The notes under the pieces were generated by a model. The model did no database searches and was not told the origin of the DNA. It saw nothing but the letters and a program-made list of their open reading frames with translations. From Rohdeia mirabilis (GTDB taxonomy: Bacteria; Planctomycetota; UBA1135; GCA-002686595), in the NCBI GenBank assembly GCA_007750655.1, contig CP036290.1, positions 186,001-250,000 of the forward strand: 64,000 bases of DNA, read 5' to 3'. The translations under genes and the position numbers were made by a program. Shown piece after piece: positions 53,629 to 64,000 of this stretch. Each line of letters opens with the position of its first letter. Within the stretch, counting starts at the first letter, position 1.

Positions 53629-53760
53629 TGGTCGGGACGTTCGGTACGGCGTCAGGCACGAAACTGCCACCGGCCGCCGAAGTCGCTGCGATTCGCAGCG
53701 ACTCGGCGCGGCCGGTGGCAGTTTCGTGCCTGACGCCGTACCGAACGTCCCGACCATCAC
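53625..53760. repeat. REP-like palindromic element (53-bp perfect inverted repeat)
   Basis: Arms 53625-53677 and 53708-53760 are exact reverse complements, and the loop holds a further perfect stem (AGTCGCTGCG/CGCAGCGACT). Shares the GGTACGG-GTCAGGCACG core and loop sequence with the element at 47253-47362. The SDR stop codon lies inside the left arm. Confidence 0.93.
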
Positions 53761-53812
53761 AGAGGGAGTAGCATGAGGCGTCCCCAACTCGCGAACGCTC
53801 CTGCCCAGCGCC

Positions 53813-54325
53813 ATGCCGACCCTCGACGACGTTCTACGACAGATTCGCGCCCTCGCCTCCGCCGACACGTTCGGCACCACGAAGGAAGTCCGCCACCTGC
53901 CCGACGTGCTCTTCGACGACGAGCCGGTCCTCGGCATCACCTCGGGCATGATGGCGGGCGACACGTGGCTGATCGTGTGCACGGACCGGCGCGTCGTCCT
54001 CTTGAACCGCGGGCTCGTGTACGGGCTGAAACAACGCGAGATGCCGCTCGAGCGCATCAACTCGATCGAGCACTCGACCGGACTCGTGTTGGGCAGCATC
54101 GCGATCTGGGACGGTGCGGATCGCATGGAGATCCGGAACGTCGTCAAGCAGACCGTCATGCCGTTCGTGGACGCGGTGAATCGAGCGCGCGTGGCGCTCG
54201 GCAGCGAGCGTGCGAGCGGCGACGACCGGGTCACTCAGCTCGAACGCCTCGCCGACCTGCGCGAGCGCGGCGCCCTGACCGAAGCCGAGTTCGACGAACA
54301 GAAGCGGCGGGTGCTCGAGGCCTAG
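53813..54325 (+). CDS. PH-like and SHOCT domain protein
   Basis: 170 aa, cytoplasmic. Residues about 30-125 are a bacterial PH-type domain (GMMAGDTWLIVCTDRRVVLL, PLERINSIEHSTGLVLGSIA). The C-terminal 27 residues are a SHOCT helix pair (LERLADLRERGALTEAEFDE, then KRRVLEA). SHOCT motifs are short oligomerisation or targeting segments fused to many domains. The role is unknown. Same strand as, and 30 bases ahead of, a small membrane protein gene, possibly an operon. Confidence 0.85.
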   Translation: MPTLDDVLRQIRALASADTFGTTKEVRHLPDVLFDDEPVLGITSGMMAGDTWLIVCTDRRVVLLNRGLVYGLKQREMPLERINSIEHSTGLVLGSIAIWDGADRMEIRNVVKQTVMPFVDAVNRARVALGSERASGDDRVTQLERLADLRERGALTEAEFDEQKRRVLEA

Positions 54326-59309: not shown

Positions 59310-61610
59310 GTGCGACTTGCGGACCATGGCCCCGTGAACGAGCGCGACCCCCACGACTCCGAGTCGGCCACGCTGCCCTCCCAGCCGGACGCCCGTCCCC
59401 AGGAGAGCGCGGGCGATCGGATCGACCGCTACACGCTGATCGAGCAGATCGGCAGCGGCGGGTTCGGGAGCGTCTGGCGCGCGCGGCAGACCGAGCCGGT
59501 CCGCCGCGACGTTGCGCTCAAGATCCTGAAGCTCGGAATGGACACCGAAGAGGTCGTGCGACGCTTCGCGGCCGAACGGCAGGCGCTCGCGCTGATGGAC
59601 CACCCCTTCATCGCGAAGGTCCACGACGGCGGTGCGACCGCGGCGGGCCGCCCGTACTTCGTGATGGAGTTCGTCGACGGCGTGCCGATCACGAAGTACT
59701 GCGACGACGAACGGCTGGGTGTGCGCGAACGGCTCGAGTTGTTCACGAAGGTCTGCGCGGCGCTCCAGCACGCCCACGCGAAGGGCGTCGTCCACCGCGA
59801 CGTGAAGCCCAGCAACGTCCTGGTCACGAGCACGGAGTCGGGCCCGGAGCCCAAGGTCATCGACTTCGGGATCGCGAAGGCGCTCGAGGCGGACCTGAGC
59901 GAGCACACGCTGGTGACCGGCGAGCTGCAGATGATCGGGACGCCCGAATACATGGCGCCCGAGCAGACCGGGGTCGACGTCGGCGGCATCGACACGCGCG
60001 TCGACGTGTATTCGTTGGGCGTCCTGCTCTACGAACTGCTCACCGGAGCGCAGCCGTTCGACCTGCGCGGTGCGCTCCTGGACCTGGGCTTCCACGAGAT
60101 GTTGCGCCGCATCCGCGAGGCCGAACCGACGCGCCCTTCGACCCGCATCGCGAGCGCGGGGGACAGCGGCATCTTCGTTGCGTCCATGAGGCGTGTCGGG
60201 CCGATGCAGTTGCAGAGCGAGCTGCGCGGCGATCTGGACTGGATCGTGCTGAAGGCGCTCGAGAAGGACCGCGAGCGTCGCTACGAAACGCCGGCGGCGC
60301 TGGCACAGGACGTGCGCAACCACCTGGACCACCGCCCGGTGGTCGCGATGCCGCCGAGCCGCGCCTACTTGGTCAGCAAGTTCGTGCGGCGCAATCGGAT
60401 CCAGGTGATCGGCGCGCTCGCCCTCTTCGGCGTGCTCGTCGTCGGCGTGATCGGTACGGGTTGGGGCCTCGCGTGGGCGCTCGACGAACAGGACAGGGCC
60501 GAACGCGCCGCGGAGTCGGTGGGCGAAGCGAAGGATGCGGCGCTCGCGCTCGTGGACGAGCTCGAACTGGCGCGGGACGAGGCCGAGCAACAGCGCGACC
60601 GCTACCAGCGCGAGTACCTGCGCGCGCTCGAAGCCAAGTTCCTGATCACGGACATGTTCCAGGCCGTCGATCCGATCAGCGTCGACGGCGCCGACACGAG
60701 CCTCTTGCGGCGCGTGCTCGAGCGGGCCGAACGGTCGATCGTGGAACGCGAGGCCCGCGACCCGTGGGTCGACGTCGAACTGCGCAGCGTCTTCGCGGCG
60801 ACGTACGCGAACTTCGGCGATCACGAGCGCGCGCGAGAGATTCTCGAGACCGCGATCGCCGACTTCGCGCCGCACGCCGAGGAGCGCGACGCCACGTTGC
60901 TCGACCTGCGGATCGAACTCGCGAGTGCCATGGTCCTCGGCGGCGCGTACGAGGACGCGGAAGAGTTGCTGGCGCGGATCCTGCCCGAGGTCGTGGCGAG
61001 CGGCGGGGGCGAGTCGCGCGCGATGATGAGGACGCTCGAACTGCGGGCGGAGCTCGCGGCGCGGACCGGTCGGATGCGCGCCGCGCTCGCCGACGGTGGG
61101 CGCGCGCTCGAGTTGCACCGGTCGGTGTACGGCGACACGTCGAGTCGCACGGCCGTCGCCATGGGGCGGCTGAGTGGTTGGTACGAGCTGGACGGTCGGC
61201 TCGAGCGCGCGGAGGAGCTGGCGACCGAGTCCCACGCGATCTTCGCCAGGAACCTCAAGTCGGACCCGATCTGGGCGTTCGAGGCGCTCGAGCGATTGGT
61301 GCTGATCCGCGCGCGCCTCGGGCACTTCGCGGCGAACCTGCCGCTCGCCGATGCGTACGTCGACGAGGCGGAACGACTCTTCGGTGCCGATCGTCCGGCC
61401 ACGCTCCGCGCGCGGGCGGTGCTCGCGACCTACTACGCAGAGGTCGGCTCTCACGTACCCGCGATGCAGTTCCAGTCCGACGTCGTGGACGGTTTCGCAC
61501 GGATCTACGGGATCGACGCCGCGCCGACCGTCGCCGCGCGCGAACGGCTCGCGGCCCTCGTCGAAGCGGCCGAAGCGTGGATCGACGGCGCGGACGCTTC
61601 CGGGCGCTGA
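59310..61610 (+). CDS. Ser/Thr protein kinase with TM helix and C-terminal repeat region
   Basis: 766 aa from the GTG at 59310 (a second in-frame GTG at 59334 is possible). Kinase domain about residues 41-345: glycine loop IGSGGFGSVW, Lys71 in VALKIL, catalytic loop VHRDVKPSN (Asp164), Mg-binding VIDFGIAK (Asp185), then TPEYMAPEQ. An extra GDSGIFVASMRR segment, usual in planctomycete Pkn kinases, precedes the C-lobe end. One TM helix (about 368-392) leads to an extracytoplasmic coiled coil and TPR-like helices (FGDHERAREILETAIADF, GAYEDAEELLARILP). Phosphorylates unknown cytoplasmic targets; the repeats probably sense or bind partners. Confidence 0.93.
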   Translation: MRLADHGPVNERDPHDSESATLPSQPDARPQESAGDRIDRYTLIEQIGSGGFGSVWRARQTEPVRRDVALKILKLGMDTEEVVRRFAAERQALALMDHPFIAKVHDGGATAAGRPYFVMEFVDGVPITKYCDDERLGVRERLELFTKVCAALQHAHAKGVVHRDVKPSNVLVTSTESGPEPKVIDFGIAKALEADLSEHTLVTGELQMIGTPEYMAPEQTGVDVGGIDTRVDVYSLGVLLYELLTGAQPFDLRGALLDLGFHEMLRRIREAEPTRPSTRIASAGDSGIFVASMRRVGPMQLQSELRGDLDWIVLKALEKDRERRYETPAALAQDVRNHLDHRPVVAMPPSRAYLVSKFVRRNRIQVIGALALFGVLVVGVIGTGWGLAWALDEQDRAERAAESVGEAKDAALALVDELELARDEAEQQRDRYQREYLRALEAKFLITDMFQAVDPISVDGADTSLLRRVLERAERSIVEREARDPWVDVELRSVFAATYANFGDHERAREILETAIADFAPHAEERDATLLDLRIELASAMVLGGAYEDAEELLARILPEVVASGGGESRAMMRTLELRAELAARTGRMRAALADGGRALELHRSVYGDTSSRTAVAMGRLSGWYELDGRLERAEELATESHAIFARNLKSDPIWAFEALERLVLIRARLGHFAANLPLADAYVDEAERLFGADRPATLRARAVLATYYAEVGSHVPAMQFQSDVVDGFARIYGIDAAPTVAARERLAALVEAAEAWIDGADASGR

Positions 61611-61742: not shown

Positions 61743-63089
61743 TCAGCGCCGCAGCGGCCGCGCGTGCTCCTCGAGTTCCGCCGCGATCCGGGCGATGTCG
61801 GTCGCCTCGAGGCGTTGCGCGCCGCGCCGCACCATCTCGACGAACCAGGCGCACTCGGCCGGCGAGACCGGACAGCCGATGTTGCCCTCGGGGCCGTCGC
61901 TGGCGACCAGTTCGCCGCCGGTCGCATCGGTCACGACGGACCACGGGATGCCGCCGGTTCGATCACCGCGCAGTCTCTTCGCCACTTCGGCGCCGTGCGT
62001 GTGGCGTTCGGTGTCGATCTTCAGGAGGACGAAGTCGCGGGCCATCAGTTCCGCGACGACGGGGCGTTCCAGGAACTCCTGGAACTTGAAGCACCAGCCT
62101 CACCAGGGCGCGCCGAGGTGCACGAGCACGCGCTTGTTCTCGCGTGTCGCCTGTTCGAGCGCCGTCCTCCACAGCACCTCCGCGTCCTTCACCGGCACGC
62201 GATGCGCCTCGGCGAAGCGGCGCAGACCGGCACCGTCGAGGCCGGCGAGAGCCACGCTGCCGAGCACGTCACCGGCGGAGGTCAGCGCGACCAGATGCGC
62301 GCCGTCGGTCGGAACGCCGAGCGCCTCGACGAGATCCGCGTGCTCGGCCCGCAGGACGTTCGCGTTCACGTACTCGTTGAACAGGAAGCGTCCGAGATCG
62401 CGATCCCCCTTGGCGAGCGCGTCGAAGCCTCCGCGTGCTTCGGCGCCACCGACGATCGCGAGGATGCGTTGGTCCTTCCTGGTCGCCGTCGCGTGCGCCT
62501 CCGCCAGTGCCGGGTGGATCGCCGTCGGATCGGGTTCGGCCAGGAGGTACTCGATCGCGCGTTCGAGCTCGCCGTTCGCGAGGTCGGCGAAGCGCAGGTT
62601 CCCCGCTCGATCGATCAGGTAGTAGTCGGGGTAGGAGTCCACGGCGTACGCGGACTTGGTCGCGTTCGCCACGTCGATCGCGACCGGATAGCCGATCTCC
62701 TGCTCACGGACGAAGTCCGCCATCTTCTCGCCGCCGTTCGTCGTGTGCACACCGATGAGGACCAGACCCTGGTCCGCGTAGCGCCCGCTGAAGTCCTTCA
62801 GCTTCGGGACGCCCGCTCGACACGGGCCTCACCAGGTGCCCCAGAAATCGAGCACGACCACCTTGCCGCGCAGTTCGGTCAGATCGAGCGGCGCGGTGCC
62901 GTCCTCCCCGCCCGCGTTGAGCCAGTTCTCGACCGCGAGGGCCGGAGCCGTCCGTCCTTCGAGCGCGTCCTTCGCGCTGCGGTCGCCTTCCCGTGAGAAG
63001 TCCGCGTCCGTTCCTTTCGACTGCGCCGTCGCTCCCGTGGCCGCGAGGGCCAGGAGCGCGAACGCCGGCATCCATGTTCGTGTTCGCAT
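61743..63089 (-). CDS. Exported double-thioredoxin-like selenoprotein with two predicted selenocysteines
   Basis: One 448-codon frame interrupted by two in-frame UGA codons (62829-62831 and 62100-62102); read as Sec they are residues 87 and 330. Signal peptide MRTRTWMPAFALLALAATGA; GAGGA at 63098-63102 is a fair ribosome site. Domain 1 (about 40-175) is TlpA/redoxin-like: VVVLDFWGTW-U-GPC, then LIGVHTTNGGEKMADF and SYPDYYLIDRAG. Domain 2 (about 305-448) is thioredoxin-like: RVLVHLGAPW-U-GWC, then FVLLKIDTERH and GGIPWSVVTDATG with the cis-Pro. In ordinary homologues both U positions are Cys (CxxC). Both UGAs have SECIS-like hairpins just downstream. Probable periplasmic thiol/selenol redox role. 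SelA/B/C/D are not in this window. Confidence 0.85.
62067..62084 (-). promoter_or_regulatory. Candidate bacterial SECIS element for the second UGA (Sec330)
   Basis: In the mRNA a perfect 7-bp stem (TTCCAGG/CCTGGAA) with loop AGTT. The loop starts 23 bases after the UGA and has G as its second base. This meets the known bacterial rules (loop about 16-37 bases after UGA, G among the first loop bases, stem of at least 4 bp). Confidence 0.75.
62784..62808 (-). promoter_or_regulatory. Candidate bacterial SECIS element for the first UGA (Sec87)
   Basis: In the mRNA a lower CCC/GGG pair, a small bulge, then a 6-bp stem (GCTGAA/TTCAGC) closed by loop GGAC. The loop starts 33 bases after the UGA and begins GG. 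Stem and position fit the bacterial SECIS consensus. Confidence 0.75.
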
Positions 63090-63194
63090 CGGTTCGTTCC
63101 TCGTGCGACGCGTCGCTCGCTGCGAGCGGGATGCTCGACGGCGCGCGTCGCGGCCAGCGTAGCCCGTCGACCGCTCCGCGTGGGGCGGCGGGAG

Positions 63195-63770
63195 TCAGCG
63201 CGACCCACTGGCGCCGGCCGCGGCGTCGAACGCTCGCTCGATCTCGGCCAGCGCCTCGTGCGGCGTCGCGGCGACCACGACCGCGCCGCTCAGTCCCTCG
63301 CGCACGAAGCCCTCCTGGACGGCGTGCTCGAGCGTCGCCAGGAGCGGGCTCCAGTAGCCGCGCGTGTCGACCAGCACGATCGGCTTCGCGTGGATGCCCA
63401 GCTGTTTGAAGCACAGCATCTCCGCCACTTCGTCCAGGGTTCCGAGTCCGCCGGGCAGCGCCACGATCGCGTCGCACTTCATGTCGAGACCGGCCTTGCG
63501 CGCGCGCATGTCGGCGACGACCTCCATGTCGAGCGTCGCTTCGCACTGCACGCCCATGTGGACGAAGCGGTCGAGGATGACGCCGCGCACCTCGCCGCCC
63601 GCCGCGCGCGCCGCACTCGACACCGCGCCCATCAGGCCGTTCCGGCCGCCGCCCCAGGTCAGCGTCCAACCGCGCTCGGCGATGCCGCGTCCGAGCGCGC
63701 GGGCGGCCTCGAGGTACTCGGCGTGGACTCCGTCCGCGGAGGCCGCGAACACCGTGATGTGGTGCGTCAT
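63195..63770 (-). CDS. LOG-family (TIGR00730) Rossmann-fold phosphoribohydrolase
   Basis: 191 aa from the ATG at 63770 (MTHHITVFAASADGVHAEYL); the upstream extension is Arg/Pro-rich. The family signature is VALPGGLGTLDEVAEML (PGGxGTxxE), with GWTLTWGGGRNGLMGAV near the N-terminus and DMKCDAIVALPG leading into it. These proteins, once labelled lysine decarboxylases, hydrolyse nucleoside 5'-monophosphates such as cytokinin riboside phosphates or AMP to free base and ribose phosphate. Cytoplasmic. The 230 bases after it, up to the window edge, hold no supported gene. Confidence 0.92.
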   Translation of the reverse strand: MTHHITVFAASADGVHAEYLEAARALGRGIAERGWTLTWGGGRNGLMGAVSSAARAAGGEVRGVILDRFVHMGVQCEATLDMEVVADMRARKAGLDMKCDAIVALPGGLGTLDEVAEMLCFKQLGIHAKPIVLVDTRGYWSPLLATLEHAVQEGFVREGLSGAVVVAATPHEALAEIERAFDAAAGASGSR

Positions 63771-64000
63771 GGCCGCGATCGTGGTGATCGCCGCAGCGCT
63801 GCGCCAGCCCGCGGTCGGAGGGACCCAGCGAGCGGAGCTGCTGTTGCGCCAACCCGAGGAGCCACCCACGAAGATGCGGCGAGGAGCCCCCCCCGGAACT
63901 CCCCGCCGCACGGGTGTTCGGCCTGCCGGTCGCGGTGCGTCCGGGTGCCGTTCTCCTCGGCTCATGGGCCCTGGCGGCTCAGGCGACCAGGTCCCACATG

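What the first reader, a model, noticed from the sequence alone, without database searches (positions are those of the whole stretch)
61743..63089. One exported selenoprotein with two selenocysteines, each in its own thioredoxin motif
Seen: three consecutive minus-strand ORFs share one frame and are separated only by UGA at 62829-62831 and 62100-62102. Translation across them gives W-U-G-P-C and W-U-G-W-C, exactly where CxxC thioredoxin-fold proteins have their first Cys. Chance stops would not both hit that residue. Each UGA has its own SECIS-like hairpin at the right distance. Known: Sec replaces the attacking Cys in several bacterial thioredoxin-like selenoproteins. Inference: a two-domain secreted selenol relay; two Sec in one bacterial chain is rare. 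Automatic callers would split it into three fragments.
Basis: partly seen in the sequence, partly recalled or inferred. Interest (0 to 1): 0.95.

Follow-up and report, generated by a model that had tools for sequence, protein, structure and literature searches.

The report
Double-selenocysteine exported thioredoxin-family protein
A bacterium, likely of the phylum Planctomycetota, carries a gene whose two internal UGA "stop" codons are predicted to be read as selenocysteine, one in each of two thioredoxin-type active sites of a single, likely exported protein; the same double-UGA arrangement stands in at least 16 other genomes, so ordinary gene callers would cut up a whole protein family.

Summary
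Confirmed. Window 61743-63089 (-) is one frame of 448 codons interrupted only by UGA at residues 87 and 330, each exactly at the first Cys of a W-C-x-x-C motif. The genome holds selA, selB, selC (tRNA-Sec) and a selD with its own in-frame UGA. A full-length Cys/Cys relative exists (44% identity). At least 17 genomes, this one included, carry the gene with UGA at both places: 10 with this architecture, 7 with a shorter one. UGA2 has a strong, positionally conserved SECIS hairpin (loop 22 nt downstream); UGA1's hairpin is good here but weakly conserved, so its decoding rests mainly on comparison. A relay between the two selenols is not shown; two relatives keep the first Sec but lost the second motif, which speaks against an obligatory relay. 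Proteins with 2-3 Sec are known in prokaryotes (14 entries of a 119-family catalogue, by my count), but none listed has, by its name, this architecture. New variant of a known kind.

The parts
61743..63089 (-). whole gene: ATG, 448 codons with two in-frame UGA, terminal UGA
63097..63102 (-). possible ribosome-binding site GAGGAA, 7 nt before the ATG
   Evidence: read in the sequence; inference
63024..63089 (-). residues 1-22, likely signal peptide (basic start, hydrophobic stretch, ATA/Q)
   Evidence: by eye; low-confidence helix 9-19 in the model; no predictor run
62532..62978 (-). residues 38-186, domain 1, TlpA/ResA-like thioredoxin fold with WUGPC
62829..62831 (-). UGA1, predicted Sec87
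62780..62813 (-). SECIS-like hairpin behind UGA1, loop GGAC at +32, -16.9 kcal/mol
   Evidence: weakly conserved in relatives
62628..62630 (-). Pro154, presumed cis-Pro of domain 1
   Evidence: invariant in 5 aligned sequences; role recalled
62196..62513 (-). residues 193-298, domain 2, thioredoxin fold without CxxC
61749..62183 (-). residues 303-447, domain 3, Thioredoxin_7 (DsbD-gamma-like) fold with WUGWC
   Evidence: Pfam Thioredoxin_7 48.8 bits, cut-off 27; model
62100..62102 (-). UGA2, predicted Sec330
62066..62085 (-). SECIS hairpin behind UGA2, 8-bp stem, AGUU loop at +22, -12.2 kcal/mol
61944..61946 (-). Pro382, presumed cis-Pro of domain 3
   Evidence: invariant in 5 aligned sequences; role recalled

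Best explanation
The gene reads as one 448-residue chain in which two in-frame UGA codons, each exactly where relatives have the first cysteine of a thioredoxin motif, are predicted to be decoded as selenocysteine, giving a likely exported thiol-disulfide oxidoreductase with two selenol active sites. Shown: the frame, the UGA positions, their recurrence in 17 genomes, the Cys/Cys relative, the complete selA/selB/selC/selD set, and the positionally conserved hairpin behind UGA2. Predicted: SelB with Sec-tRNA reads each UGA with the help of the hairpin behind it, while the terminal UGA, which has no comparable hairpin, stops translation. The chain would be exported by its signal peptide and fold into three thioredoxin folds: a TlpA/ResA-like domain with W-U-G-P-C, a middle fold without redox motif that likely serves as spacer or binding surface, and a Thioredoxin_7 (DsbD-gamma-like) domain with W-U-G-W-C. 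Inferred chemistry: each selenolate attacks a substrate disulfide and is resolved by the downstream Cys as a selenenylsulfide, which a membrane reductase would re-reduce (one DsbD_TM-type protein is in the genome). Most likely both sites reduce extracytoplasmic disulfides, with domain 3, which resembles the domain of DsbD that hands on electrons, feeding domain 1 at least in part; that last step is the least certain.
For: Frame and motifs. Sec machinery over the curated cut-offs: tRNA-Sec 70.9 bits, selA 483, selB 321.7 (348.3 with its neighbour), selD 285.6; ARAGORN tRNA-SeC with anticodon tca; selD with ACAGUAAK. U or C at the two sites in 13 of 13 and 20 of 21 covering loci. Uninterrupted relative P0002 with Cys at both, 44% over residues 30-447. 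17 double-U genomes. Purifying selection behind both UGAs in 10 pairs of close relatives: pN/pS 0.16-0.30 between them and 0.19-0.36 behind UGA2. UGA2 hairpin: 23 of 24 sequences pass the strict rule, 21 with AGUU at +22, against 215 of 2087 other codons. Domains. One DsbD_TM gene.
Against: No direct evidence of Sec in the protein. At UGA1 the strict hairpin rule passes in 7 of 26 sequences and the loose one in 17 of 26, while the loose rule also passes 248 of 683 control codons; the UGA1 fold is not unusual (z -0.88). Of the five cells with changes on both sides in the UGA2 stem, two come from sequences that do not share the hairpin. G010 and G090 lost the second site while keeping U87, which argues against an obligatory relay. 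Export and chemistry rest on sequence likeness.
Confidence: 0.85

Rival explanations
1. Two independent Sec thioredoxin domains sit on one chain, and no electrons pass between them; the fusion only co-localises two reductases.
For: Matches that cover only one domain and carry U there are common: 11 distinct loci with U87 only and 11 with U330 only, of 126 (whether the other domain is truly absent was not checked for each). The second site can be lost while the first stays (G010, G090).
Against: The pair was found in two architectures, with and without the middle fold, which suggests coupling; domain 3 matches Thioredoxin_7, the class of the electron-passing domain of DsbD (recalled).
Confidence: 0.4
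2. A decaying gene or assembly errors: chance TGA stops split a former Cys/Cys protein.
For: A Cys/Cys relative exists, and UGA1 has only a weakly conserved hairpin.
Against: The same two codons are TGA in 17 genomes, the sequence behind each is under purifying selection, and the genome holds the Sec machinery.
Confidence: 0.02
3. UGA is read as another amino acid (for instance Trp) or by general read-through, not as Sec.
For: Neither Sec nor any other residue has been shown in the protein.
Against: A Sec tRNA with anticodon tca and SelA, SelB, SelD are present; relatives have Cys at the sites; the gene itself ends in UGA.
Confidence: 0.03
4. The UGAs act as a selenium switch: with little selenium the ribosome stops at UGA1 and the 86-residue stub is lost, so that the gene is expressed only when selenium is plentiful. 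This can hold together with the main reading.
For: UGA1 lies early and its hairpin is the weaker one.
Against: Nothing in these calls tests expression.
Confidence: 0.2

Closest known systems
Redoxin-family (PF08534) and thiol-disulfide-isomerase-like (cd02966) UxxC selenoproteins of the prokaryotic catalogue (PMC13188914, Table 1)
   Same: redoxin/TlpA-type domain with Sec at the attacking position of UxxC
   Different: listed with one Sec; here a second Sec thioredoxin domain and a middle fold follow
TsoB, rhodanese/DsbD fusion-like selenoprotein (NF045694)
   Same: two Sec in one bacterial chain; its C-terminal part matches our domain 3 (residues 309-393)
   Different: 38.5 bits against a cut-off of 805; listed with a UxxxxU motif and a rhodanese/DsbD-like make-up
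ResA-like WAxxUGC selenoproteins (NF041054)
   Same: ResA-like domain with a Sec motif in the family's name
   Different: 45.3 bits against a cut-off of 300; UGC instead of UxxC
ResA / TlpA / DsbE and the C-terminal part of DipZ (Cys proteins)
   Different: Cys, not Sec; no second redox thioredoxin domain of the Thioredoxin_7 kind
DsbD gamma domain, Thioredoxin_7 and DUF255/DsbH-like domains
   Same: domain 3 over the Pfam cut-offs of Thioredoxin_7 and PF03190
   Different: no membrane part in the chain; Sec instead of the first Cys
Selenoproteins described earlier in Planctomycetes (PMC4807772, passages read)
   Same: same phylum, Sec machinery and several selenoproteins
   Different: the passages seen name formate dehydrogenase, formylmethanofuran dehydrogenase and unnamed candidates in a table that I could not read; no double thioredoxin protein is named there

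Membership tests
bacterial selenoprotein | in-frame UGA with conserved coding sequence behind it | tested here: met
   pN/pS below 1 behind both UGAs in 10 close pairs; full-length relatives
bacterial selenoprotein | Cys (or Sec) at the same place in homologues | tested here: met
   13 of 13 at residue 87, 20 of 21 at residue 330; Cys/Cys in P0002
bacterial selenoprotein | selA, selB, selC and selD in the genome | tested here: met
bacterial selenoprotein | SECIS hairpin 16-37 nt behind UGA2 | tested here: met
   -12.2 kcal/mol, AGUU loop at +22 in 21 of 24 relatives
bacterial selenoprotein | SECIS hairpin 16-37 nt behind UGA1 | tested here: inconclusive
   window hairpin fits in loop and distance, but its upper stem (-5.8) misses -7.5 and only the whole hairpin (-16.9) reaches it; strict rule 7 of 26, loose 17 of 26, loose controls 248 of 683
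bacterial selenoprotein | Sec found in the protein | not testable with these tools
   needs mass spectrometry or 75Se labelling
TlpA/ResA-type redoxin (domain 1) | Pfam AhpC-TSA / Redoxin over the curated score | tested here: met
   69.1 against 26 and 62.9 against 26.6 bits
TlpA/ResA-type redoxin (domain 1) | WCxxC motif | tested here: met
   WUGPC, Cys form in P0002
ResA proper (NF002854) | curated score of 170 bits | tested here: not met
   76.4 bits
Thioredoxin_7 domain (domain 3) | Pfam curated score of 27 bits | tested here: met
   48.8 bits
DsbD (NF001419) | curated score of 330 bits | tested here: not met
   18.8 bits, residues 307-363 only
TsoB double selenoprotein (NF045694) | curated score of 805 bits | tested here: not met
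   38.5 bits

The most novel reading that the evidence does not exclude
A so far undescribed family of Planctomycetota proteins is an intramolecular selenol relay: a Sec DsbD-gamma-like domain hands electrons to a Sec TlpA-like domain of the same exported chain, and the pairing of two Sec thioredoxin centres was kept or assembled in more than one architecture because the two selenols work as a couple.
Probability: 0.3. Interest if true: 0.8.

Novelty: new variant of a known kind. Interest (0 to 1): 0.62.

Why it matters
It points to a bacterial protein family in which two separate thioredoxin centres of one chain each use selenocysteine, in a phylum that a 2026 review of prokaryotic selenoproteins does not name (term search of its main text for planctomycet: 0), although selenoproteins of Planctomycetes have been reported (PMC4807772). 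Standard translation reports three fragments, so the family is likely to be missing or broken in protein databases. It offers a natural test of how ribosomes get through two Sec codons in one message with unequal SECIS elements, and natural U/U, U/S, U/Q and C/C versions to compare.

Tried and rejected
Rejected: pseudogene or assembly error (recurrence in 17 genomes) and a changed genetic code (the gene ends in UGA; Sec machinery present).

Given up as proof: the published SECIS rule for UGA1. The strict form fails for 19 of 26 U87 sequences and the loose form passes 248 of 683 control codons. For U330 the Cys homologues pass the loose rule in 5 of 9 cases (strict: 1 of 9), so there the evidence is the fixed AGUU loop and the stem, not the rule. 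In the stem count (5 of 8 pairs with a change on both sides, 0 of 500 shuffles) each of these is one cell; two are in the window gene, one in L133, and two in sequences that lack the hairpin (L037, L038); the slid controls show 2-4 such pairs.

Not used: pN/pS between the window gene and 11 relatives (0.29-0.78, with 0.40-0.75 of synonymous sites changed), which is near saturation. The broad pattern W-U-x-x-C in the own genome (81 matches against 67 for the reversed pattern) says nothing. The tree of domain 1 (102 rows, 141 columns) needs 6 Sec/Cys changes, but starred branches force only 1, so the number of origins stays open. The structural list for the whole model covers residues 36-187, so domain 2 was folded and searched alone; domain 3 was not. 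The distance between the two active sites was not measured: model coordinates are not in the Python box. Neighbour genes were looked at by eye in the window and in L051 only; none was seen in common.

Rows left out of counts: one search chose loci by a peptide pattern that contains the first Cys, so its loci are not in the 13 of 13 and 20 of 21 counts; they are in the C87 control, the 126-locus tally and the tree. In one search the rows L096 (C/C) and L159 (C/T) have a doubtful alignment at 330. Double-U genomes are a lower bound: of the matches the 30 best loci were read, the 12 best.

Literature: 9 full-text searches listed no report of this protein; preprints and most subscription papers are not held. 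PMC13188914: abstract, sections 5, 7 (parts 1 and 2 of 3) and 10, and passages. PMC4807772, PMC2398784, PMC9312934, PMC12013277: passages only. Others: search listings.

Full report
Observation. The frame at 61743-63089 (-) is open for 448 codons except for TGA at 62829-62831 and 62100-62102, and ends in TGA. Read with TGA as U it gives WUGPC at residue 87 and WUGWC at 330. The chain begins with a basic and hydrophobic stretch ending in ATA/Q that looks like a signal peptide (by eye).

Machinery. The genome (one contig of 4.95 Mb, 89.5% complete) holds tRNA-Sec (70.9 bits, cut-off 47; ARAGORN: tRNA-SeC, anticodon tca), selA (483 bits, cut-off 267.9), selB (321.7 bits, 348.3 with its neighbour; cut-off 242.25) and selD (285.6 bits, cut-off 125). 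selD begins about 70 nt behind selA and has one in-frame TGA, in ACAGUAAK, so it is itself a predicted selenoprotein.

Comparison. All of 61 genomes (own and 60 relatives) had matches to the protein; of the 30 loci fetched and read, 13 cover position 87 (8 U, 5 C) and 21 cover position 330 (12 U, 8 C, 1 S). Both are U in the own genome, G013 and, in a shorter protein, G055. A profile search of the 154 genomes held for the order gave matches at E <= 1e-40 in 69; of the 30 best loci read, 14 genomes have U at both sites: ten with the window's architecture (G000, G013, G080, G092, G097, G098, G099, G100, G102, G103) and four shorter ones (G055, G106, G146, G153). A sample of 392 genomes of the phylum gave 19 with a match at E <= 1e-60; of the 12 best loci, three further double-U genes lie in another family (G275, G317, G341). 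That makes at least 17 genomes. G010 has U87 and S330, G090 has U87 and Q330. An uninterrupted 443-aa protein of a Planctomycetota MAG (P0002) has Cys at both positions and aligns over residues 30-447 at 44% identity.

Selection. Among five close relatives (10 pairs) pN/pS is 0.00-0.13 before UGA1 (from residue 30), 0.16-0.30 between the UGAs and 0.19-0.36 behind UGA2. The stretches behind both UGAs are kept as protein.

SECIS. The published model asks for a 3-9 nt loop, a 4-16 bp stem, G in the first two loop bases, 16-37 nt from UGA and at most -7.5 kcal/mol (PMC13188914, Fig. 2 legend). At U330, 23 of 24 distinct sequences pass with contiguous stems and 24 of 24 if bulges are allowed; 21 share the AGUU loop 22 nt behind UGA. 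In the 8-bp stem, 90.3% of cells pair (shuffles 85.0%), 5 of 8 pairs have a change on both sides (none of 500 shuffles reached that), and sliding the partner lowers pairing to 33-57%, with 2-4 such pairs; each both-sided change is a single cell, and two of the five come from sequences without this hairpin. Controls: 215 of 2087 other codons of these genes pass the strict rule; Cys homologues pass it in 1 of 9 cases at 330 and 0 of 78 at 87. At U87, 7 of 26 pass the strict and 17 of 26 the loose rule, against 2 of 78 Cys homologues, but the loose rule also lets 248 of 683 control codons and 5 of 9 Cys homologues at 330 pass. Of the ten genes of this architecture one passes the strict and five the loose rule at UGA1. 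The window's own UGA1 hairpin has loop GGAC at +32 and -16.9 kcal/mol over its length, -5.8 for the upper stem. So UGA2 has a convincing SECIS and UGA1 a plausible but weakly conserved one. The terminal UGA has only -2.2.

How it would work. Each Sec stands at the N-terminal, attacking position with a Cys three residues on, and Pro154 and Pro382, presumed to face them, are invariant in the 5-sequence alignment. The likely cycle is selenolate attack on a disulfide, resolution by the Cys and re-reduction from a membrane thiol reductase; one DsbD_TM protein is in the genome (59.1 bits). Whether domain 3 feeds domain 1 is inferred from its likeness to the DsbD gamma domain (role recalled) and from the pairing in two architectures; G010 and G090 show that domain 1 is kept without the second motif.

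Novelty. The 2026 review lists 119 families; by my count of its Table 1, 14 entries have two or three Sec. By their names none combines a redoxin with a second Sec thioredoxin domain. Of the 18 NCBIfam models listed for this protein none reaches its cut-off. Nine full-text searches listed no report. Sec at the attacking Cys and more than one Sec per chain are known; the double-centre architecture and its spread in Planctomycetota appear to be new.

Noticed in passing
order of the window's genome (154 genomes): The coding pattern for W-U-G-P-C (TGGTGAGGNCCNTGY) occurs in 146 of 154 genomes, while the reversed control is mostly 0 or 1 per genome: the order looks rich in thioredoxin-type selenoproteins.
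   Followed up: partly
G000:C1 near 2896420, 3481330 and 4139060: Three more WUGPC-coding sites in the own genome; two lie in matches to this protein with one in-frame TGA, so further Trx-like selenoprotein genes are likely.
   Followed up: partly
L017/L018 (G000:C1:1897562-1899801): selA and selD lie next to each other and selD has an in-frame TGA at its active-site position.
   Followed up: yes
window 62066-62085 and the U330/C330 relatives: Most Sec forms of domain 3 read EEFL behind the motif, which spells the SECIS (GAG GAG TTC CTC); several Cys forms read E-G/D/A-W-M/L instead, though the Cys protein P0051 also has EEFL. The SECIS may constrain the protein.
   Followed up: no
window 63195-63965 (-) and 59310-61610 (+): Neighbours: upstream on the same strand an ORF with GGGRNGLMG and PGGLGTLDE motifs as in LOG-family proteins (recalled); downstream, convergent, a serine/threonine-kinase-like ORF. 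No family search was run.
   Followed up: no
window about 52600 and 53700-54200: ORF translations hold near-identical short stretches (GTASGTNPPPEV, GTASGTKLPPAA, RPVAVSCLTPYRTSRPS), which suggests a short dispersed repeat between genes.
   Followed up: no
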